From the NCBI GenBank assembly GCA_007753915.1, contig CP036352.1:2294001-2358000 (forward strand): a stretch of 64,000 nucleotides of DNA. Reading direction: 5' to 3'. This document shows positions 45,042-64,000 of the stretch, piece after piece. Both the position numbers and the translations under genes were made by a program. Positions within the stretch are counted from its first letter, which is position 1, and every line of letters starts with the position of its first letter. Below the pieces are notes generated by a model, which did not search any database, had not been told where the DNA came from, and saw only the letters and a list, made by a program, of their open reading frames with translations. The DNA comes from Phycisphaerae bacterium RAS2. GTDB lineage: Bacteria; Planctomycetota; Phycisphaerae; UBA1845; UTPLA1.

Positions 45042-45368
45042 TCAGACCAGGTCAGCCATCATTGTCGGCGATACCCACTCGGACAGCTGCATGCCGTTCG
45101 GTGTGTTGAGCTGGCGCAGCGTGTACCTGCATCCAATCCGCTTCGGCGCCGACAGCCGTCGTCGCAACCGATCCTGCACGACCGTCCGAGCCTCTTCCAG
45201 GTCTGGACTTACCAAGCGAAGCTCGCGGAGCGGAGTGCCGACCCGGCCGTAGTGGACCCATACGACCCAGTCGCCGAGCAGGTCCCGGCCGACCGAGACT
45301 TCGTACCGGCGGTGACGGTTCAGTTCCTCACTGTGCGCTTCCAGCGCGATCGTCAGGAGGTCGAACAT
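45042..45368 (-). CDS. WGR-domain protein
   Basis: 108 residues, almost all of them a WGR-like domain (NRHRRYEVSVGRDLLGDWVV, YGRVGTPLRELRL, APKRIGCRYTL). WGR domains bind nucleic acids and occur in PARP proteins and bacterial regulators. Its start overlaps the end of the resolvase gene by 16 bases, so they are translated together. A DNA-binding role in recombination or repression is plausible but unproven. Confidence 0.7.
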   Translation of the reverse strand: MFDLLTIALEAHSEELNRHRRYEVSVGRDLLGDWVVWVHYGRVGTPLRELRLVSPDLEEARTVVQDRLRRRLSAPKRIGCRYTLRQLNTPNGMQLSEWVSPTMMADLV

Positions 45369-45946
45369 GCGGCTTCCGTAGGTTTGGATTCGCGGAGATA
45401 CTGGTAGAGCGTTTGCCGGCTGATCGCGAACTCGCGGGCGAGCCAGGCTTTCTTCTCGCCGCCGGCGGCGCGGGCGCGAAGTTCCTGCACCCGATCTGAC
45501 GAGAGTGCCCGCTTTCGTCCCCGGTAGACGCCGCGCTGCTTAGCCAGAGCGATGCCCTCGCGCTGGCGTTCCCTGATGAGGTCTCGCTCGAATTGCGCCA
45601 CCGCGCCGAGCACGGTCAGCATCAGGTTCGCCATCGGCGAATCGTCGCCGGTGAAGAGCAGGTTCTCCTTGATGAACTGGACGCGCACGCCGCGCTTCGT
45701 CTGTTCATGCACGATGCGCCGCAGGTCGTCCACGTTGCGGGCCAGGCGGTCCATGCTGTGAACGATGATCGTGTCGCCTTCACGTGCATACAACACGAGC
45801 GCCATGAACTCCGGCCGCTCCGTGTCCTTTCCGGAGGCCCGGTCGGTGAAGACGCGGTCCAGGTCCACGCCTTCGAGTTGACGCTCCACGTTCTGGTCGT
45901 ACGAACTGACCCTGACGTACCCGATCCGCTGCCCCTTCGCCGACAC
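45353..45946 (-). CDS. Small serine recombinase (resolvase/invertase)
   Basis: 197 residues starting at GTG 45946. RIGYVRVSSYDQNVERQLEG carries the catalytic Ser, FTDRASGKDTERPEFMALV and IVHSMDRLARN complete the active-site region, and a helix-turn-helix closes it (AWLAREFAISRQTLYQYL). This is a Tn3-type resolvase or a plasmid multimer resolvase; no Tn3 transposase is present nearby. The region upstream contains repeated TGTC/GACA half-sites. Confidence 0.92.
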   Translation of the reverse strand: MSAKGQRIGYVRVSSYDQNVERQLEGVDLDRVFTDRASGKDTERPEFMALVLYAREGDTIIVHSMDRLARNVDDLRRIVHEQTKRGVRVQFIKENLLFTGDDSPMANLMLTVLGAVAQFERDLIRERQREGIALAKQRGVYRGRKRALSSDRVQELRARAAGGEKKAWLAREFAISRQTLYQYLRESKPTEAACSTS

Positions 45947-46389: not shown

Positions 46390-46806
46390 TCACGACCAGG
46401 AGATGCTGTCGATGACCGTCGCCCTGTCGTCATTGTCTCCGATGCCCGAGTCCGCCTCCTGCACCCATGGCACACGATGCCGAGCGAGTCCCTCGAACAG
46501 CCGTACCGTTGGACGCACTTCGGCGTTCAGGTTGCGGCCCTTGATCCGCACCTTCTGGCCGGAGACCGAGAGCGTGATGCCCTCCGACGGATCGAACTCG
46601 GCCTTTTCGATATAACCGTAGCTCACGGCAAGGATGTTCCCGTCACTCTTCCGAAGCTCCAAGCAGACGGCACGGTCCCGGATGCCTCGCAGCCAGCCGA
46701 ACGCGCCAAGATCATCCGCCGCCTCGGTGTCGGCCTGCGGGACGACCCCGGCCGCAGGATCGCCGTTGCGGGCAACGTACTTCTGAAGGATCGTTCTATC
46801 GGTCAT
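46390..46806 (-). CDS. Conserved-looking protein of unknown function, coupled to the relaxase
   Basis: 138 residues. Its start lies 11 bases inside the end of the relaxase gene, so it is translated with it. The middle (LELRKSDGNILAVSYGYIEK, GITLSVSGQKVRIKGRNLNA) is beta-rich and looks like a small OB- or Sm-like domain. A role as relaxase accessory is suggested by position only. Confidence 0.65.
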   Translation of the reverse strand: MTDRTILQKYVARNGDPAAGVVPQADTEAADDLGAFGWLRGIRDRAVCLELRKSDGNILAVSYGYIEKAEFDPSEGITLSVSGQKVRIKGRNLNAEVRPTVRLFEGLARHRVPWVQEADSGIGDNDDRATVIDSISWS

Positions 46807-49441
46807 GTTTCAGCCCTCGATCTTCCCGGTGCATGCCGGTAGCCTGCATTGCCGTCGCCAACTGCTCCTGTCTCTGCAAGGCGGCCCCGCGATGACGCAA
46901 GTCGCGTCCTGTCAGTAGTTCCGTCGCCGTGAGCCGCTCATCCGACCGGCTGACCGCCTCCAGCAGTGCTTCTTTGTCATCGGTGTATACGGTCGCCTGC
47001 TCGCGACCTCTGCTCACACTGACGTAGAACTGCTCGCGCGAGGACGCTGAGAACGAGTCTGAAGACTGGCCGATGAACACGCGGTCCACCGTCTTTCCCT
47101 GTGAGGCGTGCGAAGTCACGACGTAGCCATGAGCCAGGTGACCGTAATCGGACGCGACCGTCCAGCCGTTCGTGAGCCGGATGTCTCCATTGGGTGTGAA
47201 GCTCTTGACCGTGTAGAGCCCGCCGTTGTTGAGCCGATGCTCGCCATCGGCGGTCATGCCGTTGCGCGTGATCCGCAGCAGGTCGCCGGGCGCGACCGGC
47301 AGTACGCCCGGGCGGAACACCTGGAATCTGCCCGACTGGTCGAGCGGCAGCGGCACCTCGCCAACGACGAGGCGCTGTCCCTTCCGGTATCCCTTCGCAT
47401 TCTGGTGGAACACGATCACGTCGCCGATGCTGTAGTTCACCGCGTCGGAACGCTCCGCCTCCGTGAAGTTGGTGTTCTCCAGCGTGAAGAAGGTGCGTTC
47501 GCCGCTGCCGAGCTTTCCTGCCTGCTTGAGCCGAGCGCGGATTTCGTCGGTGATCCACTCTCCCTCCAAGTGCGTAGGCGACACCACCAGCGCCGACTTA
47601 CCTTCGGCGAGCGTGTCCACATAGTCCGCCGCCAGCGCCTTGTACCGATCCGTCTCCGGCACATCCCTGATCCAGCCCAGTTCGTCCAGCCGCCGGAACC
47701 CGTCTTCCGTCCGACCTTCGGATAACTCCCGCACGGCGTCCTTGTAGTCGCCGCGCTGCCGCTGAATCTCCCGGATCTCCGCCGACTTCAGCCCGGCCCG
47801 CTCTTCGAGCAGCCGCAACGCCGCCCCGCGTTCCACCGAACCGTGTTGCCGCCGGTCGCCGGAGAGAATGACGCGGGCGTCGAGTCTCTCCGCCAGGTCG
47901 AAGACTTGCGCCATCGTCCGCGTGCCAAGCAGGCCGGCTTCGTCAATCCAGATGACCTGCCCGCGGATATCGGCCTGCATCCGCTCATCCTTGAGCAGCC
48001 GTGCCACGGTGTCGGAATCGGCAAACCCTTCAGAACGGAGAACACCGCGGCTCGCATCGGCCGAGGGCGCGAACGTAAAGACGCGCCGGCCGTTCGCCTC
48101 GATTGTCTCGACGGCCTCCTGCATCATCGTTGTCTTGCCGGTGCCGGCGACTCCCCGGACCACAATGACGCGGTCCGGCGAGCCGAGCACATGCTCCACC
48201 GCCTGCTTCTGCCCCGCGTTGAGCCATTCGCGACTGAACGTGTGCGGCGTCTGTTCCAACCGCCTGCACGAGCCGCGGCCGGTCCGGGCGAAGTCGATCA
48301 TGCGGCGCTCTTCGCCGAGCACCGTATCCGTCGTGACGAGCCTGCGGCCGTCCCGCTCCCCGAAGACAAGCCCCTGCCCGCCGAGCGTCCGGCTCATGGT
48401 ATCCGGCGAGGCAGCGCCCACAGAGCGTTTAAGCGCCTCCGCCAGCACCTTGCGCTCCGGGACGACCGATGCACGCTCGAAGCAGTGACCCACCGCCCGC
48501 GACATCGCGTCGCCAGCAATCCGGTCATCCTCCGCGATGCCCTCTCCGCCGAGCCGTGACTTCACGCCGCTCAACGCGGCGAGTTCCTCCGGCGTGAGGC
48601 GCGAGGTCCACTGCTCACGCAGTTCGTCAAGCGTCAGGTCTTTCTGCTTGCGCTCGCGCGTCGTGGCGCCGAGCGCGCCCTTCGCATCCGGGTGTGTGAT
48701 CCCCCTCTCCCGCGCGGCATCCTCTATCAGCGCCGTGCGGCGCGAGAACTTCTGAATCGCCGACATCGGCACGCCGCGGAGTTCCCAACCGCGTTTCGTG
48801 CGTTCGACCGGCAGTCCGAGTTCCTCGAGTCGCCGGGCCAGGCGCGAGTGAAACACGGCCTCGAAGAAAGGTGCGTCGCGCTTGATCCCGGCGAACTGGC
48901 CCGCCTTCCAGCGGGATTCCTCCGCGTCCCAAGTCGTGTTGAACACGAAGCAGTGCGCGTGCAGGTGCGGGTCGGGTACACCGTTCACAGGCCGGGCCGT
49001 GAAGTGAACAAACTCGCCCCACGCCATGTTGCCGGTCGCGCGATCGGCGTTCTTGCCGCCGATGCGGACGCGGGTCTGCATTTCCGCTTCCATGTCCTGC
49101 ATCGTCGCGTCCACCGACTCGCGGAACGCCTCGAGAATGCGATCATCGCGCGTCAGGCCGTAGAGAATCGAGACGCTCTTGGGGACGTGGAAGTTGAAGT
49201 CGTATCCGACGCGGCGATCCGTCTTGCGCCGCGGCGTCAGCACATCGCCGGTGGCTGGATTGCGGTTGTCACAGAGCGCGTCCCAGTCCTCCTTGCGGAC
49301 ATCGCCGCTCAGGCCGAGCCGGGCAGCGCCCTCGCCGCGCCACAGGCCGACAAGCTCCTGCCCCTCCGTGTAGTAGTCGGAGGTCGTGTAGTAGCTCTTT
49401 GCCCCTTCGGGTGCGCTGTTCTGCGTGATGCGGAGCATCAC
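46796..49441 (-). CDS. MobF relaxase with RecD-like helicase
   Basis: 881 residues. The N-terminal relaxase domain has paired Tyr residues at 17-18 and 23-24 (SYYTTSDYYT) and the metal-binding triad HLHAH in PDPHLHAHCFVFN (His159, 161, 163). The helicase domain has Walker A GVAGTGKTTMM (about 430), Walker B VIWIDEAGLLG and C-terminal VTSHASQGKTVDRVFIG motifs of superfamily 1B. It nicks oriT, stays bound to the 5' end and unwinds the strand for conjugation. This is a MobF type, as in TrwC and TraI. Confidence 0.95.
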   Translation of the reverse strand: MMLRITQNSAPEGAKSYYTTSDYYTEGQELVGLWRGEGAARLGLSGDVRKEDWDALCDNRNPATGDVLTPRRKTDRRVGYDFNFHVPKSVSILYGLTRDDRILEAFRESVDATMQDMEAEMQTRVRIGGKNADRATGNMAWGEFVHFTARPVNGVPDPHLHAHCFVFNTTWDAEESRWKAGQFAGIKRDAPFFEAVFHSRLARRLEELGLPVERTKRGWELRGVPMSAIQKFSRRTALIEDAARERGITHPDAKGALGATTRERKQKDLTLDELREQWTSRLTPEELAALSGVKSRLGGEGIAEDDRIAGDAMSRAVGHCFERASVVPERKVLAEALKRSVGAASPDTMSRTLGGQGLVFGERDGRRLVTTDTVLGEERRMIDFARTGRGSCRRLEQTPHTFSREWLNAGQKQAVEHVLGSPDRVIVVRGVAGTGKTTMMQEAVETIEANGRRVFTFAPSADASRGVLRSEGFADSDTVARLLKDERMQADIRGQVIWIDEAGLLGTRTMAQVFDLAERLDARVILSGDRRQHGSVERGAALRLLEERAGLKSAEIREIQRQRGDYKDAVRELSEGRTEDGFRRLDELGWIRDVPETDRYKALAADYVDTLAEGKSALVVSPTHLEGEWITDEIRARLKQAGKLGSGERTFFTLENTNFTEAERSDAVNYSIGDVIVFHQNAKGYRKGQRLVVGEVPLPLDQSGRFQVFRPGVLPVAPGDLLRITRNGMTADGEHRLNNGGLYTVKSFTPNGDIRLTNGWTVASDYGHLAHGYVVTSHASQGKTVDRVFIGQSSDSFSASSREQFYVSVSRGREQATVYTDDKEALLEAVSRSDERLTATELLTGRDLRHRGAALQRQEQLATAMQATGMHREDRGLKHDR

Positions 49442-55119: not shown

Positions 55120-55663
55120 GGCTGAAAGGCCGCTCCAGAGAGGGCAGGCCCGGTGGCGCCGGCCGTCCTGTCGTCACACCGACCACGAAGCGCAGAAGCC
55201 CCTGCCGCGCATCCTTCGCCAATCTCATCGGGCGAGGACGATGCACACGCCGTCGATCCGGTAGCGCGGCCGCATCCGGTGTCAGCCGGCGACCGGCATC
55301 GGGAAGGGCGCTCCAGAACACATCCCACTTCGCACGGTGAACCCGCCAGCAGTGGCACTGGTTGATGCCGGCATTGTCGTACTCCGCCGGGTTACGGGCA
55401 GCCGGCGATGGGCTTGCCCGGCTTTCAATCGCGCCGCTCCGGCCGTCACCGCTTCGCTTCCCGCCTCCAAGTCATGCATGACTCGCGCCGGACCCGCCGA
55501 AGCCGGCGCCTTCCAGGTCCGGTCCGTCATTCGTCCTGCTCCGCTTCGCGGGACTCTCCGGCGGGCTGCCGGCCTGCGCGCCGCTCGCTCCTTTGTCACC
55601 CCCGCCGTGGTCCCTGTCTCGGCGAAGGGACCGCACGTCGCGGGTCCCGACAAGGAGCAGAAC
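55120..55663. other. Non-coding region and long leader before ardC
   Basis: The 544 bases before ardC contain no supported gene. The last 230 bases are a pyrimidine-rich leader, and GGGACC (55627-55632) pairs with GGTCCC (55643-55648) close to the AAGGAG of ardC. A similar leader with inverted repeat precedes the plasmid gene at 49995. Confidence 0.45.
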
Positions 55664-56485
55664 ATGAAAGCCGAACAAGCCAGGAAGATCGCCGACCAGG
55701 CCCTCGAACAACTCGCGAATGCACTCGCCAACGGCCGGAGCGAAGCACTCACCCGTTACCTCTCCATGCTGGCGAGGTTCCACCGCTACAGCTTCGGCAA
55801 CGTCATGCTGATCCTGTCGCAGAAGCCCGACGCGACGCACGTCGCCGGCTTCAACACCTGGAGGCAGATGAGCCGCTTCGTCCGCAAGGGCGAGAAGGGC
55901 ATCGTCATTATCGCACCGATGGTCATCCGCAACCGCGATGACCAGGCGAAGGACGGCGAGCAGCAGGACAAGCCGATGCTCCGCTTCCGCGGCGTGTACG
56001 TTTTCGACGTGTCGCAGACCGACGGCGAGCCGCTGCCGGAGCCTGCCCGCGTCAACGGCGATCCGAGCGGCCATCTTCCGAGCCTCAAGGCGTTCGTAGT
56101 CGAGCGCGGCATCGCCCTGGACAACGACGACCTGCCCGGCATGGCGGATGGAGTCTCACGCGGCGGACGCATCAGCATCCGGCCGGGACTCTCTCCCGCC
56201 GAAGAGTTCGCCGTGATCGTCCACGAGCTGGCGCACGAACTGCTGCATCGCGGCGAGAACCGCCCGGCCAGCAAGACCGTCCGCGAGACCGAAGCCGAAG
56301 CCGTCGCGTTCGTCGTCAGCCAGTCCATCGGACTCAACGCCGGCGCCGCCGCCCGCGACTACATCCAGCTCTACGACGGCCAGACCGAGACGCTCGCCGC
56401 GTCGCTCGACCGCATCCAGAAGACCGCCGCCGAGATCATCGCGGCGCTTCACGACGCCCCCGACGAGCAGGCGAACGCCGCCTGA
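55664..56485 (+). CDS. ardC: ArdC-family antirestriction protein
   Basis: 273 residues from ATG 55664 with AAGGAG. The N-terminal ssDNA-binding-like part (YSFGNVMLILSQKPDATHVA, WRQMSRFVRKGEKGIVI) is followed by a metallopeptidase-like domain with HELAHELLH (HExxH). ArdC protects transferred single-stranded DNA from restriction in a new host. Here its cognate problem lies close by, because a type I restriction operon starts 280 bases downstream. Confidence 0.9.
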   Translation: MKAEQARKIADQALEQLANALANGRSEALTRYLSMLARFHRYSFGNVMLILSQKPDATHVAGFNTWRQMSRFVRKGEKGIVIIAPMVIRNRDDQAKDGEQQDKPMLRFRGVYVFDVSQTDGEPLPEPARVNGDPSGHLPSLKAFVVERGIALDNDDLPGMADGVSRGGRISIRPGLSPAEEFAVIVHELAHELLHRGENRPASKTVRETEAEAVAFVVSQSIGLNAGAAARDYIQLYDGQTETLAASLDRIQKTAAEIIAALHDAPDEQANAA

Positions 56486-56765: not shown

Positions 56766-58562
56766 ATGACTGACCGACCGTTCCAAGACCGGCAACCGAG
56801 CGTCAGCGCGAACCCCCGTATCCGTACACCGCAGCGAGAGACGTATGCCGCGCTGGCCGAGTTCGCCGCGAACCCCGGCGATGAGCGCGAGGTCGGGATC
56901 GTGCTCCCGGTTGGATGCGGAAAGTCCGGGTGCATCACGCTCGCGCCATTCGCGTTTCGCTCGAAGCGAACGCTCGTTGTCGCGCCGGGACTGAAAATCG
57001 CCGAACAGCTCTACAAAGACTTCGACCCGACGAAGCCCGACATGTTCTACATCAAGTGCGGCGTGTTGCAGGGGCAGCCGTACCCCGAGCCCGTCGAGAT
57101 CAGGGGCACGAACACCAATCGCAGCGACCTGGACGAGTCCCACGTCGTCATCACCAATATCCAGCAGCTACAGGGGCAGGAGAACCGCTGGATCGCCAAC
57201 CTTCCGAGGGACTACTTCGACCTGATCCTCTTTGACGAGGGGCACCACAGCGTCGCCGAGACCTACGAGGGCCTGAAGGCCAGTTTTCCAGCCGCACGCA
57301 TCATCAACTTCAGCGCGACTCCGCTCCGAGCCGACGGCCAGAAGATGGCGGGCAGGGTGCTCTATTCCTATCCCATCTTTCGCGCCATCCAAGAGGGCTA
57401 CGTCAAGCGCCTTAAGGCGCTCGTCCTCAATCCCCGAACGCTCAAGTACGTTCGTCGGGAGAACGGCCAGGAGATCGAAGTCTCCCTTGACGAGGTGCGC
57501 CGGCTCGGAGAGCAGGAAGCCGATTTCCGCCGGAGCATCGTGACCTCGAACGAGACGCTTACGACGATCGTCGATGCGTCCATCCGCGAGCTCGACCGCA
57601 TTCGCGCCGAGACGGGCGATCAGCGGCACAAGATCATCGCGTCGGCCCTCAACTTCGAGCATTGCCGCCAGGTCGTTGAGTGCTACAGGGCACGCGGACG
57701 CCGCGTGGATTACGTCCACAGCAGGGAAGACGGCGCGGCCAATGACGCGGTGATGAGAAAACTGGAAGCCCACGAGCTCGACGTGATTGTGCAGGTCCGC
57801 AAGCTCGGAGAGGGTTACGACCATCCGTACCTCTCCGTCGCAGCGGTGTTCAGCATCTTTGCGAACCTCTCGCCCTTCGTGCAGTTTGTCGGCCGCATCA
57901 TGCGGGTCATCAAGCAGAACAGCCCGAACGATCCGCTGAACCAAGGAACGGTCGTCTTTCACGCCGGGGCGAACATCGCCAGCCGGTGGGAGGACTTTCA
58001 GGAGTACAGCGAGGCCGACAAGCAGTTCTTCGATCAGCTTCTCCCGATGGAGGCGCTGGACTTCCGCGACGCCAACGAGCTCGCGGTTGCGCCCATGCCG
58101 CGACAGCCCAACACCGTGGAAGTTCGCGCCCAAAGCGGCCTGCTCCTGGAGGAGATCCCGCTCCTGGACAACGAAGCGGTCCAGCAGGCGATCAACACCC
58201 TCAAATCCTTCGGCTTGACGGGTGCCCAAGTCGCCCAGGCGATGGAGCACGAGCCCGTTCCCACGACGAAAGCGAACGAGCGCCAGGCCGCCCGCGCATC
58301 GCTCGACACGCGCATCAAGAACGAGGTCGGCCGCATTCTCGGCCAGAAGAGCTTGAACCACCAGGGCAAGGACCTGGACACGAAGCACCTGAACAAGACC
58401 AACTTCGTCATCGTGAAAGCCGCGATCGACAAGCAGGTGAACGCGGCCGTAGGAAAGGGAACCGGCGAACGCCACGAGTTCAACAAGACGGAGCTCGACA
58501 CGATCAACGGTAGTTTTGCGGAGCTTGTGAATGCCGCCGAGAGGGAGGTCTTCGGTGGCTAG
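56766..58562 (+). CDS. SF2 DExH helicase (first gene of the defence operon)
   Basis: 598 residues. Walker A is VGCGKSG (about 49-55), the Walker B/DExH box is FDEGHH (about 156-161), FSATPLRADG is motif III, and LGEGYDHPY plus QFVGRIMRVI fit motifs V and VI of superfamily 2. The last 150 residues lack a known domain. It overlaps the next gene by eight bases. It is not an HsdR subunit because the nuclease and the type I coupling region are absent; an accessory helicase for restriction or an independent defence protein are both possible. Confidence 0.85.
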   Translation: MTDRPFQDRQPSVSANPRIRTPQRETYAALAEFAANPGDEREVGIVLPVGCGKSGCITLAPFAFRSKRTLVVAPGLKIAEQLYKDFDPTKPDMFYIKCGVLQGQPYPEPVEIRGTNTNRSDLDESHVVITNIQQLQGQENRWIANLPRDYFDLILFDEGHHSVAETYEGLKASFPAARIINFSATPLRADGQKMAGRVLYSYPIFRAIQEGYVKRLKALVLNPRTLKYVRRENGQEIEVSLDEVRRLGEQEADFRRSIVTSNETLTTIVDASIRELDRIRAETGDQRHKIIASALNFEHCRQVVECYRARGRRVDYVHSREDGAANDAVMRKLEAHELDVIVQVRKLGEGYDHPYLSVAAVFSIFANLSPFVQFVGRIMRVIKQNSPNDPLNQGTVVFHAGANIASRWEDFQEYSEADKQFFDQLLPMEALDFRDANELAVAPMPRQPNTVEVRAQSGLLLEEIPLLDNEAVQQAINTLKSFGLTGAQVAQAMEHEPVPTTKANERQAARASLDTRIKNEVGRILGQKSLNHQGKDLDTKHLNKTNFVIVKAAIDKQVNAAVGKGTGERHEFNKTELDTINGSFAELVNAAEREVFGG

Positions 58563-58779
58563 AAAATCCCTTGTTCAACGATCCGAGATCGACGAGGCCC
58601 AGAAGTCACACAACTGCCAGGCAAGCGCGAAGCACCGCCTCAAGCCGGGCGATCGTCGTCTGAAGGTTTACGTCAATCGTGCGCACGATCACTACTGCGC
58701 CGAGTGCGGCATCAAGATCATCGAGGCCGACATCGCGAAGCTTCAGGAGCTCGCCGGTCAACTGAAAGGCGAGCAATGA
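58555..58779 (+). CDS. Small zinc-ribbon-like protein between helicase and hsdM
   Basis: 74 residues from GTG 58555, which has GGGAGG upstream and overlaps the helicase stop. VNRAHDHYCAECGIKIIEAD has CAEC and upstream His residues that may form a zinc site, together with SHNCQASAKHRLKPGD. It starts a chain of four-base overlaps. Possibly a structural or DNA-binding partner of the helicase or methylase. Confidence 0.65.
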   Translation: MARKSLVQRSEIDEAQKSHNCQASAKHRLKPGDRRLKVYVNRAHDHYCAECGIKIIEADIAKLQELAGQLKGEQ

Positions 58780-60800
58780 ACAACTTCAGCGACAAGGTGC
58801 AGTTCATTTGGAGCATCGCCGACTTGCTCCGCGGCCCGTACAAACCGCCGCAGTACGGCCGCGTCATTCTCCCCTTGACCGTGCTCCGCCGCCTGGATTG
58901 CGTGCTGGCGCCGACGAAGGACAAGGTGCTCTCCAAGGCCGCGACTCTGAAGGGGTCGAAGGTCGAGAACATCGAGCCGATCCTCAACCGGGCCGCGGGC
59001 CAGGCGTTCCACAACACCAGCCCGCTCGACTTCCAGAAGCTCAAGGGCGAGCCCGACAAGATCGCGGCGAACCTCACCCGCTACATCAAGAGCTTCTCGC
59101 CCCAGGCCAGGACCATCCTCGACTACTTCGGGTTTGAGACCGAAATCGCCAAGCTGGACGAGGCCAATCGCCTCTACATGGTCATCGACCGTTTCGCGGG
59201 CGTTGACCTTCATCCGGATCGTGTCCCGAACATCGAGATGGGCTACATCTTCGAGGAGCTCATTCGGCGGTTCAACGAAGCGGCCAACGAGACGGCGGGC
59301 GACCACTTCACGCCCCGCGAGGTGATCCGCCTGATGGTGAATCTCCTGTTCGAGCCCGACAACGACATCCTCACGAAGAAAGGCATTCTCAGGACGCTCC
59401 TGGACCCCGCGTGCGGCACCGGCGGCATGCTCTCGGTTGCCGACGAGTACCTCCGCGAGCTCAACCCCGATGCTCGCCTGGAGGCCTTCGGCCAGGACCA
59501 CAACCCCGAGTCTTACGCCGTGTGCGGCTCGGACATGCTCATCAAGGGCCAGAACATCGAGCACATCGTCTTCGGGAGCAGCTTTACGAAGGACGGCTTC
59601 GCCCGAGAGCGCTTCGACTACATGCTCGCAAACCCGCCCTTCGGCGTGGAGTGGAAGCCCGACGCCGACGAGATCGTTAGAGAGCACGAGACCAAGGGCA
59701 TGGACGGCCGCTTCGGGGCGGGCCTTCCCCGCATCAACGACGGTTCGCTCCTCTTCCTTCAGCACATGCTCTCAAAGATGAAGCCCGCCAAAGAGGGCGG
59801 CACCCGCATCGGGATCATCTTCAACGGATCGCCGCTCTTCACCGGAGACGCGGGATCAGGCGAGAGTGAAATCCGCCGATGGATTCTGGAGAACGACTGG
59901 CTCGATGCCATCGTGGCGCTTCCCGAGCAGCTCTTCTACAACACCGGCATCTTTACCTACCTCTGGATTCTCACCAACCGCAAGCGCCCCGAGCGACGCG
60001 GAAAGGTGCAGCTCATCAACGCGGTGAATCTCTACCGCAAGATGCGCAAGAGCCTCAACAACAAGCGGAACGAGATCGCGGCCGAGCACATCGACGAGAT
60101 CACGCGGCTCTACGGCGCGTTCGGCGATGGAACCGCGTCCAAGGTGTTCGACGTCGCCGACTTCGGCTACCGGAAAGTCACGATCGAGCGGCCCCTCCGC
60201 CTCAACTTCCAGGCATCGCCCGAGCGCATCGAGCGGCTCCGCGAGGCCAAGCCGTTCCAATCGCTCGCCACGTCGAAGAAGAAGGGCAAGGAAGCGGCGG
60301 CCGAGATCGCGGCGGGCAAAGCGCTTCAAGAAGCGATCATCGACGCGCTGAAGACGCTCGAAGCGGGCAAGGTCTACAAGAACCGAGACGCCTTCGGGAA
60401 AGACCTCGCCGCAGCGACCAACGACGTAAAGATATCCGCGCCCATCAAGAAAGCGATCCAGTCCGCGCTCTCCGAACGCGATGAGACGGCCGACATTTGC
60501 CGGGACAAAGACGGCAACCCGGAGCCGGACGCCGACCTCCGCGACTACGAGAGCGTTCCCCTCAAAGAAGACATCCGCGCCTACTTCGACCGTGAAGTGC
60601 GGCCGCACGTTCCCGATGCCTGGATCAACGAGAGCGTGACGGACGCGAAGGATGGTGAGATCGGGAAGGTCGGCTACGAGCTCCCGCTCACGCGGCATTT
60701 CTACGTCTATCAGCCGCCGCGTGAACTTGCTGCGATCGAGGCCGACATCACCGGCTTGGAGAAGGACATCGTGCGGATGCTGGCTGAGGTAACGCGATGA
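58776..60800 (+). CDS. hsdM: Type I restriction-modification methyltransferase subunit HsdM
   Basis: 674 residues from ATG 58776 (ATGA overlap). FTPREVIRLMVNLLF is the N-terminal family signature, LDPACGTGGML (about 209) is the SAM-binding motif I and LANPPFGVEW (about 284) the catalytic NPPF motif of N6-adenine methylases. HsdM with HsdS methylates the recognition site and is the base of the restriction complex. The C-terminal 120 residues are extra compared with the shortest relatives. Confidence 0.95.
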   Translation: MNNFSDKVQFIWSIADLLRGPYKPPQYGRVILPLTVLRRLDCVLAPTKDKVLSKAATLKGSKVENIEPILNRAAGQAFHNTSPLDFQKLKGEPDKIAANLTRYIKSFSPQARTILDYFGFETEIAKLDEANRLYMVIDRFAGVDLHPDRVPNIEMGYIFEELIRRFNEAANETAGDHFTPREVIRLMVNLLFEPDNDILTKKGILRTLLDPACGTGGMLSVADEYLRELNPDARLEAFGQDHNPESYAVCGSDMLIKGQNIEHIVFGSSFTKDGFARERFDYMLANPPFGVEWKPDADEIVREHETKGMDGRFGAGLPRINDGSLLFLQHMLSKMKPAKEGGTRIGIIFNGSPLFTGDAGSGESEIRRWILENDWLDAIVALPEQLFYNTGIFTYLWILTNRKRPERRGKVQLINAVNLYRKMRKSLNNKRNEIAAEHIDEITRLYGAFGDGTASKVFDVADFGYRKVTIERPLRLNFQASPERIERLREAKPFQSLATSKKKGKEAAAEIAAGKALQEAIIDALKTLEAGKVYKNRDAFGKDLAAATNDVKISAPIKKAIQSALSERDETADICRDKDGNPEPDADLRDYESVPLKEDIRAYFDREVRPHVPDAWINESVTDAKDGEIGKVGYELPLTRHFYVYQPPRELAAIEADITGLEKDIVRMLAEVTR

Positions 60801-62110
60801 GCACAGTGGTCGCAATGCCGCGAGGCCGCACCGAGGGACAGCGCCCCGGTCAGTACCCGGACTACAGGGCGACCGGGCTGGATTGGCTTCCTGTCATTCC
60901 ACAACACTGGTCGATGGAGAAACTGAAGTACATCGCCCAAGTGCAGTTCAGCAATGTGGACAAGAAATCGGAAGTAAGCGAAGTACCGGTGAGGCTCTGC
61001 AACTACGTGGACGTGTACTACCACGACCGAATCACCTCCGAGATCGAGTTCATGGAAGCCACGGCGGACCCGCGAGAGATCGCCAAGTTCCAGGTGCAGC
61101 CGGGCGATGTGCTGGCGACCAAGGATTCCGAAGACCCCAACGACATCTGTGTGCCCGCCGTTGTCGGAGAACCCCTCCCCGGCGTGCTTTGCGGGTATCA
61201 CCTCGCACAGGTTCGACCACTGCCCGGCATTTCATGCGGCGGCTACATCATGCGGGCTTTCGCTTCGTGCGGAGTGCGCGATCAGTTTCGTAAACGAGCC
61301 AACGGCATTACCCGCTTCGGCCTCTCGCAGGACGCGGTTTGCAGCGCTCTGATTCCTGTGCCGCCGCTCGAAGAGCAAGAGGCCATCGCGAAATGGCTTG
61401 ACGACCGCGCGAAGCGGATCGATGAGCTCGTGGCAGCCAAGCGGCGGCTCATGGACCTGCTGGCCGAGCAGCGAACAGCCCTCATCGCCAAAGCCGTCAC
61501 CAAGGGCCTCGACCCTGCCGCCCCCATGAAGCCCTCCGGCATCGACTGGCTGGGCAACGTGCCGAGGCATTGGGAGATTAGGCCTCTCAAGTACGCGGTG
61601 ACGTTTCAGCGAGGACACGACCTCCCGTCTGAAGAGCGAAGCGACGGTGAAGTACCGGTCGTCACCTCTGCCGGGCCTTCAGCGTGGCATGACCGTGCCG
61701 CAGCACAAGGCCCGGGGATCGTCACGGGGCGATACGGCACGATCGGTGTGTTTCACCTTGTCAACGGCCCGTACTGGCCGTTGAATACCACACTCTACAG
61801 CATCAACCTGCACGGCAACAATCCTGATTTCTTGAGGCATATGCTTCACACATTGAAGCCGGTGTTCTTGTTGAACGCTGCAAAGTCGGCAGTGCCGGGC
61901 GTGGATCGAAACGATCTTCATCCGATCCCCGTTGCAGTGCCGTCCCGGGCAGAACAGGATCAGATCGCTCATCACCTCGACATCGTGGAGAGGCGAACGA
62001 ACGAGTTGGCAACGGCCGCGGCGACGGCCATCGACAAGCTCCAGGAGTACCGCCAGGCTCTCATCACCGCCGCCGTCACAGGCAAGATCGACGTGCGGAG
62101 GAATGCATGA
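60797..62110 (+). CDS. hsdS: Type I restriction-modification specificity subunit HsdS
   Basis: 437 residues. Two target-recognition domains begin with similar motifs (TGLDWLPVIPQHWSMEKLKY and SGIDWLGNVPRHWEIRPLKY) and each is closed by a conserved helical region (PPLEEQEAIAKWLDDRAKRI and PSRAEQDQIAHHLDIVERRT). It chooses a bipartite DNA site. It overlaps hsdM and the following membrane gene by four bases each. Confidence 0.95.
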   Translation: MSTVVAMPRGRTEGQRPGQYPDYRATGLDWLPVIPQHWSMEKLKYIAQVQFSNVDKKSEVSEVPVRLCNYVDVYYHDRITSEIEFMEATADPREIAKFQVQPGDVLATKDSEDPNDICVPAVVGEPLPGVLCGYHLAQVRPLPGISCGGYIMRAFASCGVRDQFRKRANGITRFGLSQDAVCSALIPVPPLEEQEAIAKWLDDRAKRIDELVAAKRRLMDLLAEQRTALIAKAVTKGLDPAAPMKPSGIDWLGNVPRHWEIRPLKYAVTFQRGHDLPSEERSDGEVPVVTSAGPSAWHDRAAAQGPGIVTGRYGTIGVFHLVNGPYWPLNTTLYSINLHGNNPDFLRHMLHTLKPVFLLNAAKSAVPGVDRNDLHPIPVAVPSRAEQDQIAHHLDIVERRTNELATAAATAIDKLQEYRQALITAAVTGKIDVRRNA

Positions 62111-62682
62111 GCCAGAACTCCGCGACTAACTCCGAAGGCCTCCCGCTCGCCAGGCTATGTATGGTCTTGGCGAGTCTATCGCCGCTGTTCATCCTTTGGG
62201 CGATTCGTGGCATCAACTGCGTTCCGGACCGGTATCTTGTCCCGGCGTGCATCGCTCTCGTAGTCCTGCCGAACCTGGTGTTGTTCGGGCGACTGGCCTT
62301 GGCCAAGCGGGCGAATGATGTTCAGTCCAAGGTGATCGGTTCGGCGGACGATCATCGCGATCACCTGCTCGTGTATCTGTTTGCGGTGCTCCTGCCCTTG
62401 TGGGATGCCGGAGCCGACAGCGTGCGAAGTGGCGCCGGCATCATCGTGGCGTTGCTCTTTGTGGTGTTCTTGTTCTGGCACATGAACCTCCACTACATGA
62501 ACCTACTCTTCGCGCTGATCGGAAGGCGCGTTTACTCGGTTTACGACCAATCCAGTGAATCGATGGCGACAGACGCTGCGGGTTTTATCCTCATCACTTG
62601 GCGGACCGCCATACCGGTCGGAACTCGTGTCGATGCGTTCCGGCTCAGTAACCGGGTCTATTGGGAGAAGCGAAACGCATGA
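62107..62682 (+). CDS. kwaA: KwaA-like membrane protein (Kiwa defence system)
   Basis: 191 residues. Four transmembrane helices at about 15-34, 43-65, 86-104 and 109-126, and a soluble C-terminal 60 residues. Size, topology and position directly before a DUF4868-like gene match KwaA, the membrane component of the Kiwa system. Known Kiwa forms a membrane-bound complex that senses phage at infection. Sequence similarity to KwaA itself could not be measured, so the name rests on architecture and partner. It overlaps both neighbours by four bases. Confidence 0.7.
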   Translation: MSQNSATNSEGLPLARLCMVLASLSPLFILWAIRGINCVPDRYLVPACIALVVLPNLVLFGRLALAKRANDVQSKVIGSADDHRDHLLVYLFAVLLPLWDAGADSVRSGAGIIVALLFVVFLFWHMNLHYMNLLFALIGRRVYSVYDQSSESMATDAAGFILITWRTAIPVGTRVDAFRLSNRVYWEKRNA

Positions 62683-63605
62683 GCACCGTAGACCTTGCGA
62701 ATATTCGCACGACCGAGTTTGGCGTCTGCCTGTACGGAGATGGCAACGACAACAACGTCTTAGTGCCCGTCGATGCGGGAGTGCAAACCGCGCTTCGTGA
62801 GATGGCGCAGGCTACGGCCGACAAGATCGGATGCTTCGGCCGCAATGCCAACCTGCCGAGCTACGAGCCGGCGGAGAAGTACGCAGCGACAGAGGCTCTG
62901 AAATGCCCTATCGACGACGACCTTGAGGCGTCAGCTCCCGTTGCACTCTTTCGTGCGAACAACCTCCCGACATCTGTGGCAGCGATAGCGGAACCGTCCG
63001 CCATCGAGTTCTACTTTGCCCGACTGCGAGACAATCGGGGTCGGCAATTGATCGCCGTCAAGCGAGCGGCTCAGTTCAAGGGGATGCTCAAGGCCAAGGG
63101 CCGGTTGATCCGCTGGCTCGACGACACAATGCAGGTTGTTGAGGATGACGTGTTCAAGCTGGACCCGGACTTTGACTACCTTGTTACGGACGATGAGATC
63201 TACATCCTGCGCCCGAGTGCGTTCGAGTTCACCGTCGATCTTGACGAGACCATTCTCGCGAAAGCGAAGGAGAACGCGGAGAGTCTTCACAACACCGTGG
63301 CATTCATCGACTTCTCTGGGATCGCCGAGTATGTGGGCGGACACAAGCGAGCAGCCCGGCTCGTTGCCGCCCTCAAGAAGCGCAACGACTTGGCCTCCAC
63401 AGACCAGCGACTATTGAAGAAGGAGTGCCGAGAGACCGGTGTCGCGGTTGAGCGACGGAACGGGCGGATGTGTCCCGCAGCGGGGCACGAATACGAGTTC
63501 CTGATGCTCCTGGATCGCCGCCGTTACGCTCTCACACTCATCGCGGACACTCCTGAAACCTACGAGGCTCCGAGTCGACGAAGGGTCAACGGGGGTGCGG
63601 CATGA
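62679..63605 (+). CDS. kwaB: KwaB-like DUF4868 protein (Kiwa defence system)
   Basis: 308 residues from ATG 62679. Residues about 110-187 (YFARLRDNRGRQLIAVKRAA, DDVFKLDPDFDYLVTDDEIY, ILRPSAFEFTV) match the DUF4868 signature of KwaB, and the total length of about 310 agrees with it. In characterised Kiwa the KwaB subunit acts on DNA downstream of KwaA sensing. Start overlaps kwaA by four bases; a TTG start six codons earlier is less likely. Confidence 0.75.
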   Translation: MSTVDLANIRTTEFGVCLYGDGNDNNVLVPVDAGVQTALREMAQATADKIGCFGRNANLPSYEPAEKYAATEALKCPIDDDLEASAPVALFRANNLPTSVAAIAEPSAIEFYFARLRDNRGRQLIAVKRAAQFKGMLKAKGRLIRWLDDTMQVVEDDVFKLDPDFDYLVTDDEIYILRPSAFEFTVDLDETILAKAKENAESLHNTVAFIDFSGIAEYVGGHKRAARLVAALKKRNDLASTDQRLLKKECRETGVAVERRNGRMCPAAGHEYEFLMLLDRRRYALTLIADTPETYEAPSRRRVNGGAA

Positions 63606-64000
63606 CGGTCGATCACAGAGAGCGGGCCTTCGAGGCAGCGATCGAGGACACGCTCCTCACGAGCGGCGGATACGTCAAGACGGACCCAGCAGCCTTCGAC
63701 CGCGAACGGGCGATCGATCCGGCCGTGTTTATCGCCTTCGTGAAAGACACGCAGCCCGAGACCTGGAACGCCCTGGAGAAGCTCCACGGCACCGGCACCG
63801 AGAGCGTGCTCCTGGACGACCTGGTGAAGGCGTTGGATGGTGCGAGCACCGTGCTCGGCGTGCTCCGACACGGCTTCAAGTGCTTTGGGAAGCTCGTGCG
63901 GGCCGCGTACTTCGCGCCCGCCCACGGGATGAACCCCGACACGCTGAAGCTCTACCAGGCGAACCGGCTGACGCTCACGCGGCAACTGAAGTACAGCACC
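63602..64000 (+). CDS. hsdR: Type I restriction endonuclease subunit HsdR, N-terminal part (cut by window end)
   Basis: 133 codons are visible before the end of the window. ERAFEAAIEDTLLTSGGYVK, DPAAFDRERAIDPAVFIAFV, GVLRHGFKCFGKLVRAAYFA and NRLTLTRQLKYST match the N-terminus of HsdR proteins ahead of the nuclease domain. The motor and nuclease motifs lie outside the window. It overlaps kwaB by four bases, so the restriction subunit is translated after the Kiwa-like pair. Confidence 0.9.
   Translation, partial: MTVDHRERAFEAAIEDTLLTSGGYVKTDPAAFDRERAIDPAVFIAFVKDTQPETWNALEKLHGTGTESVLLDDLVKALDGASTVLGVLRHGFKCFGKLVRAAYFAPAHGMNPDTLKLYQANRLTLTRQLKYST

What the first reader, a model, noticed from the sequence alone, without database searches (positions are those of the whole stretch)
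60797..64000. Kiwa-like gene pair (KwaA/KwaB) inserted between hsdS and hsdR with four-base overlaps
A four-TM protein and a DUF4868-like protein, the two components of Kiwa, sit inside a type I restriction operon, and every junction (hsdS/kwaA, kwaA/kwaB, kwaB/hsdR) is an ATGA overlap. That means fixed, co-translated expression of a membrane-sensing defence module and restriction. The fused arrangement could place KwaB action on DNA that restriction has already cut or is scanning. I do not know whether this exact arrangement has been described.
Basis: partly seen in the sequence, partly recalled or inferred. Interest (0 to 1): 0.85.

Follow-up and report, generated by a model that had tools for sequence, protein, structure and literature searches.

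The report
Kiwa genes inside a restriction operon
Two genes of a known anti-phage membrane defence (Kiwa) sit, with overlapping start and stop codons, in the middle of a complete type I restriction operon, in a slot that related bacteria fill with other defence genes or leave empty, so this looks like one case of defence modules being carried inside other defence operons.

Summary
Window 58776-66634 (the end read from the host genome) is an intact type I restriction operon, hsdM-hsdS-kwaA-kwaB-hsdR, with ATGA overlaps at every junction. The pair is genuine but divergent Kiwa: PADLOC KwaA E=1.6e-66, KwaB E=2.1e-87; Pfam KwaB above its gathering score; the solved KwaA and KwaB structures are the top fold matches. 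Both fall far below NCBIfam's equivalog cut-offs.

Orthologous operons in the same order (HsdR 69-80% identical) show that the hsdS-hsdR junction is a cargo slot: nearly empty in one genome, elsewhere holding SLFN/AlbA_2 ATPases, a PDC-S11 gene or a UvrD-type helicase. More distant relatives hold DarTG or nothing. The same Kiwa subfamily (9 loci) lies inside restriction operons five times. Two host type I systems share only 22-28% identity while their KwaB proteins are 59% identical, so Kiwa moves as a module.

Best reading: Kiwa as co-expressed but functionally separate cargo. Embedding at hsdS-hsdR is published for DarTG2, and PrrC sits in a type IC locus; I found no account of Kiwa there, but the key preprint was not readable.

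The parts
58531..58779 (+). small ORF (82 aa) overlapping hsdM by ATGA; unknown, no family match; membership in the operon uncertain
58776..60800 (+). hsdM, type I methyltransferase (674 aa)
   Evidence: PADLOC MTase_I PDLC03029 1.7e-292; Pfam N6_Mtase and HsdM_N; DPACGTGG and NPPF motifs
60797..62110 (+). hsdS, type I specificity subunit (437 aa)
   Evidence: PADLOC Specificity_I PDLC03072 4e-95; Pfam Methylase_S, two stretches
62107..62682 (+). kwaA, membrane component of Kiwa (191 aa, four hydrophobic segments)
   Evidence: PADLOC PDLC00218 1.6e-66; profile match to PDB KwaA 6.8e-5; fold match to KwaA; hydropathy
62679..63605 (+). kwaB, DUF4868 component of Kiwa (308 aa)
   Evidence: PADLOC PDLC00228 2.1e-87; Pfam PF16162 1.3e-13; profile match to PDB KwaB 4.1e-5; fold match to KwaB
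63602..64000 (+). start of hsdR, cut by the window end; complete at window-equivalent 63602-66634 (1010 aa, L002:7602-10634)
   Evidence: NCBIfam hsdR TIGR00348 2.5e-58, below its curated cut-off; helicase and ExK motifs

Best explanation
A divergent Kiwa module (kwaA-kwaB) is carried as cargo in the hsdS-hsdR slot of a complete type I restriction-modification operon. Shown: the gene content, the intact reading frames, the ATGA junctions, the nearly empty or differently filled slot in relatives, and the repeated occurrence of this Kiwa subfamily in restriction operons. Inferred: one transcript, with translation coupled across the junctions, makes both systems together; KwaA works in the inner membrane as the sensor and KwaB as the DNA-binding effector, as in E. 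coli Kiwa; restriction independently cuts unmodified DNA. The two would act as complementary layers (an entry-site block that does not depend on methylation, plus methylation-dependent cutting) without direct contact. The benefit of the arrangement would be joint transfer and shared regulation, with the methylase genes read before both the cargo and the nuclease.
For: Family and fold matches to KwaA and KwaB. Slot comparison in orthologous operons: 19 bp in L035; SLFN/AlbA_2 in L034 and L037; PDC-S11 in L036; UvrD-like helicase in L038; DarTG in the more distant L042. Same Kiwa subfamily embedded in L003, L009, L055 and, in a type III-like operon, L060. KwaB 59% identical in L009 and L055 while HsdM is 28% and HsdR 22% identical. 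Two loci of the subfamily stand free of restriction operons (L008, L054), so the pair does not need one. DarTG2 at the same junction in EPEC (PMC12255303).
Against: No transcript or phage data. The subfamily's repeated association with restriction (seven of nine loci embedded or adjacent) could mean cooperation and not only shared transport. The sample is small and not random.
Confidence: 0.68

Rival explanations
1. Functional coupling: Kiwa and the type I enzyme cooperate. KwaB holds injected DNA at the membrane while the restriction complex scans it, or restriction fragments are KwaB's substrate.
For: Tight co-translation junctions; recurrence of this subfamily with restriction operons, five of nine embedded, against none of six loci of other KwaB families. 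Published Kiwa work places KwaB on entering DNA at the membrane (summarised in PMC12904381).
Against: The slot accepts unrelated cargo; Kiwa is found at two different junctions, in unrelated type I systems, in a type III-like operon, and free. KwaB is reported not to cleave DNA and to act on phage DNA without restriction.
Confidence: 0.15
2. Guardian or decoy: Kiwa is a back-up kept inside the restriction operon for phages that inhibit restriction, as PrrC guards EcoPrrI. DNA-mimic inhibitors that occupy the type I enzyme would leave Kiwa free to act, or the enzyme would soak up mimics that would otherwise block KwaB.
For: PrrC is embedded in a type IC locus and senses inhibition of restriction (PMC12707154). 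From my own knowledge, the 2025 Cell paper on Kiwa reports that the DNA-mimic Gam blocks KwaB and that RecBCD restores protection; that paper could not be read here.
Against: No evidence that KwaA or KwaB contacts Hsd proteins; Kiwa works without a restriction operon elsewhere; same positional arguments as above.
Confidence: 0.1
3. The pair is a Kiwa-like relic or has drifted to another function and no longer works as Kiwa.
For: Low identity to tested Kiwa and missed equivalog cut-offs, 47.1 of 100 bits and 25.9 of 200 bits; the N-terminal part of KwaB shows little detectable sequence similarity to tested KwaB.
Against: Both frames are intact, and many residues are invariant across members from several phyla that are down to about 28-40% identical to the window's proteins (39 in KwaA, 35 in KwaB), which indicates selection on the proteins. 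The predicted folds still match KwaA and KwaB first.
Confidence: 0.07

Closest known systems
Kiwa (KwaA/KwaB; PDB 9mrx, 9mrg, 9mtn)
   Same: Gene pair and order, four-segment membrane protein plus DUF4868 protein, family and fold matches
   Different: Divergent subfamily far below NCBIfam equivalog cut-offs, and located inside a restriction operon, which six loci of other KwaB families are not
DarTG2 embedded between hsdS and hsdR (RptR-RMS-DarTG-M48 island of EPEC, PMC12255303)
   Same: A complete second defence system at the same hsdS-hsdR junction of a type I operon; DarTG is also found in this slot in a relative of the present operon (L042)
   Different: The cargo is Kiwa, not a toxin-antitoxin pair. 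No homologue of the RptR repressor was searched for here
PrrC anticodon nuclease embedded in the type IC locus ecoprrI (PMC12707154)
   Same: An accessory defence gene inside a type I operon
   Different: PrrC is a guardian that senses inhibited restriction; no such link is known for Kiwa
Guilt-by-embedding defence candidates (Payne et al. 2024 preprint; PDC families in PADLOC)
   Same: The same principle: defence genes found inside other defence operons; PDC-S11 and PDC-S23 models hit slot genes here
   Different: I could not read the preprint, so whether it lists Kiwa inside type I operons is unknown

Membership tests
Kiwa | KwaA-type membrane protein | tested here: met
   PADLOC PDLC00218 1.6e-66; PDB KwaA by profile 6.8e-5 and as the seven best fold matches; four hydrophobic segments. 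NCBIfam equivalog cut-off missed, 47.1 of 100 bits: a divergent member
Kiwa | KwaB with the DUF4868 domain | tested here: met
   PADLOC PDLC00228 2.1e-87; Pfam PF16162 above its cut-off; PDB KwaB by profile 4.1e-5 and as the six best fold matches. NCBIfam equivalog cut-off missed, 25.9 of 200 bits
Kiwa | kwaA directly followed by kwaB on one strand | tested here: met
   ATGA overlap at 62679
Kiwa | KwaA tetramer and KwaA-KwaB membrane supercomplex; DNA binding by KwaB; anti-phage activity | not testable with these tools
   Only single-chain, low-confidence models; activity needs experiments
Type I restriction-modification | intact HsdM, HsdS and HsdR with their motifs | tested here: met
Type I restriction-modification | methylation and cutting activity, target sequence | not tested
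   No methylome data; needs experiment
Defence system embedded in a type I operon (hsdS-hsdR cargo slot) | cargo genes absent from the same slot in orthologous operons | tested here: met
   19 bp in L035, other cargo in L034, L036, L037, L038
Defence system embedded in a type I operon (hsdS-hsdR cargo slot) | same strand, overlapping or abutting genes, one transcript | tested here: inconclusive
   Strand and overlaps met; transcript not testable here; no internal sigma-70-like promoter found
PrrC-like restriction guardian | activation when the restriction enzyme is inhibited | not testable with these tools
   Needs phage and inhibitor assays
Functionally coupled Kiwa-restriction system | physical or regulatory dependence on the restriction enzyme | not testable with these tools
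   Position alone is uninformative because the slot holds unrelated cargo in relatives

The most novel reading that the evidence does not exclude
This Kiwa subfamily is specialised to live in and work with restriction systems: KwaAB holds entering DNA at the membrane, or takes over when DNA-mimic inhibitors disable the restriction enzyme, so the operon is a single two-stage defence and not two co-transcribed ones.
Probability: 0.15. Interest if true: 0.75.

Novelty: new variant of a known kind. Interest (0 to 1): 0.42.

Why it matters
It adds a membrane-acting defence to the modules known to be carried inside type I operons and shows that one Kiwa subfamily has entered unrelated restriction operons more than once, at different junctions. 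That gives natural replicates for asking whether embedding means cooperation or only shared transport and regulation. The orthologous slot with the same borders and many cargos, including a nearly empty one, is a clean comparative set for that question.

Tried and rejected
Viral contigs and phage records: no relatives of this KwaB. Considered and rejected: that the pair is an unrelated DUF protein with a chance membrane partner (family and fold results speak against it); that hsdR is missing or broken (complete in the host genome); that the arrangement is a unique accident (it recurs in L003, L009, L055 and, in another restriction system, L060). A tree of KwaA+KwaB that included the distant L020 was unresolved; without it three branches were well supported. 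Literature: searches for Kiwa with hsdS, hsdR or embedded found no paper describing this arrangement, but the 2025 Cell paper on Kiwa and the Payne 2024 preprint are not in the library, so a prior description cannot be excluded.

Full report
WHAT IS THERE. On the + strand, hsdM (58776-60800), hsdS (60797-62110), kwaA (62107-62682), kwaB (62679-63605) and hsdR (from 63602) are chained by ATGA overlaps. The window cuts hsdR, but the host genome has it whole, 1010 aa, ending at window-equivalent 66634. By base composition about 17% of long open frames in the window end in ATGA, so one overlap is weak evidence; five in a row joining identified genes are an operon signature.

IDENTITY OF THE PAIR. 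KwaA matches PADLOC PDLC00218 at 1.6e-66 and KwaB PDLC00228 at 2.1e-87; other KwaA and KwaB models match more weakly. Pfam KwaB (PF16162) is above its gathering score. With eight relatives as a profile, the only PDB sequences that match are solved KwaB (4.1e-05) and solved KwaA (6.8e-05). Predicted folds are of low confidence, yet the six best PDB matches of the KwaB model are KwaB entries and the seven best of the KwaA model are KwaA entries. Both proteins fall far below NCBIfam's equivalog cut-offs: this is a divergent Kiwa subfamily, not an ortholog of the tested pair.

IT IS AN INSERTION IN A CARGO SLOT. Searching 120 related genomes with HsdR gave 12 genomes with strong matches, the host included. 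Five further copies are 69-80% identical over nearly the full length, and in the four of these whose upstream genes are visible HsdM is 65-79% identical. Where they can be compared, HsdS C-termini (...AAVTGKIDV, then a variable tail) and HsdR N-termini (M(P/T)xDHxExAFE) mark a shared slot. It is 19 bp long in L035. In the others it holds an SLFN/AlbA_2 plus HATPase_c_4 protein (L034, L037), an ORF with a weak HTH match plus a PDC-S11/DUF4268 gene (L036), or a UvrD-like helicase (L038). In more distant HsdR relatives it holds a FokI-like nuclease plus a methylase/specificity-like protein (L040), DarT plus DarG (L042), an unidentified ORF (L044) or nothing (L041, L043). In this genome it holds Kiwa. 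Several relatives also carry a gene in the hsdM-hsdS slot; the one tested (L034) is RhuM, Pfam 2.4e-102; the others look alike by eye only.

THE KIWA SUBFAMILY AND ITS HOMES. Nine loci with a PDLC00228-type KwaB were collected. Inside a restriction operon: the window; L003 (hsdS-kwaA-kwaB-hsdR start, at the end of a short contig assigned to an archaeal metagenome-assembled genome, so its source is uncertain); L055 (hsdS-kwaA-kwaB-Abi_C-RhuM/Fic-hsdR); L009 (hsdM-kwaA-kwaB-hsdS-AlbA_2-hsdR, again with short overlaps); L060 (SNF2/HKD helicase-kwaA-kwaB-DUF4391-GmrSD, with a type III methylase further along the same strand). Next to a type I operon but separate: L007 and L019. Neither: L008 and L054 (L054 has a lone DNA methylase gene about 1 kb upstream). 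Six loci of other KwaB families (L020, L049-L053) are not embedded. The counts, five of nine against none of six, are small and not a random sample.

MOBILITY. L009 and L055 have KwaB 59% and KwaA 61% identical, but their HsdM are only 28% and HsdR 22% identical, and the pair sits at different junctions. In the tree the window pairs with L003 (support 98/99), while L009, L019, L055 and L054 form another group (97/95) that mixes embedded, adjacent and free loci. L060 came later and is not in the tree. Embedding has therefore most likely been gained or lost more than once.

SURROUNDINGS. A TrwC-type relaxase (46796-49441, minus strand), a resolvase (45353-45946, minus strand) and an ArdC-type anti-restriction gene (55661-56485) lie upstream. 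Beyond the window, downstream of hsdR, are a CBASS-type cyclase, a HORMA protein and a NucC nuclease. The congeneric genome searched has no strong HsdR match and no KwaB of this family. This fits a defence island on or next to a mobile element; its ends were not mapped.

HOW IT MOST LIKELY WORKS. Shown: gene order, intact frames, slot comparison, recurrence. Inferred from the published Kiwa mechanism (PMC12904381): KwaA senses infection at the membrane and KwaB binds entering DNA and blocks replication and late transcription without cutting. Inferred from type I biology: HsdMS methylates and HsdR cuts unmodified DNA. The simplest account is two complementary defences made from one transcript and moved together. 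A guardian or decoy link like that of PrrC remains open.

WHAT IS KNOWN. DarTG2 between hsdS and hsdR in EPEC, and another gene pair in the same place in four genomes, led the authors to call the site a potential recombination hotspot (PMC12255303). PrrC sits in a type IC locus (PMC12707154). 'Guilt-by-embedding' has been used systematically (cited in PMC12255303 and PMC12988326). No paper found in the searchable library puts Kiwa in this place, but two key texts were not available. I rate it a new variant of a known kind.

Noticed in passing
window 55661-56485 (+): An ArdC-type anti-restriction gene (Pfam ArdcN 1.5e-11, weak Peptidase_M78) lies about 2 kb upstream of the type I operon.
   Followed up: partly
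window 46796-49441 (-) and 45353-45946 (-): TrwC-type relaxase/helicase and a serine resolvase, suggesting that the defence genes lie on or beside a mobile element.
   Followed up: partly
L002:11958-15278 (window-equivalent 67958-71278, beyond the window): CBASS-type cyclase, HORMA protein and NucC-type nuclease just downstream of hsdR: the operon is part of a defence island.
   Followed up: partly
window 56766-58562 (+): A ResIII/DEAD-type helicase of 598 aa directly upstream of the operon; not found upstream of hsdM in the orthologous operons compared.
   Followed up: partly
L060:5256-18820: The same Kiwa subfamily between an SNF2/HKD helicase and a DUF4391 gene, followed by GmrSD and, further on, a type III methylase: Kiwa inside a different kind of restriction operon.
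   Followed up: partly
L040:5503-9245 (-): The hsdS-hsdR slot of a related operon holds a FokI-like nuclease gene and a 776-aa protein with methylase-like and specificity-like parts: possibly a restriction system inside a restriction system.
   Followed up: no
L003:4365-4613: The hsdR start after kwaB runs for about 60 residues and then continues as an unrelated HTH-like sequence to a stop near the contig end: a chimaeric assembly or a truncated hsdR.
   Followed up: no
L055:7148-8877 (-): An Abi_C protein and a RhuM/Fic protein (PDC-S23) share the hsdS-hsdR slot with Kiwa, so one slot can hold several cargo genes.
   Followed up: partly
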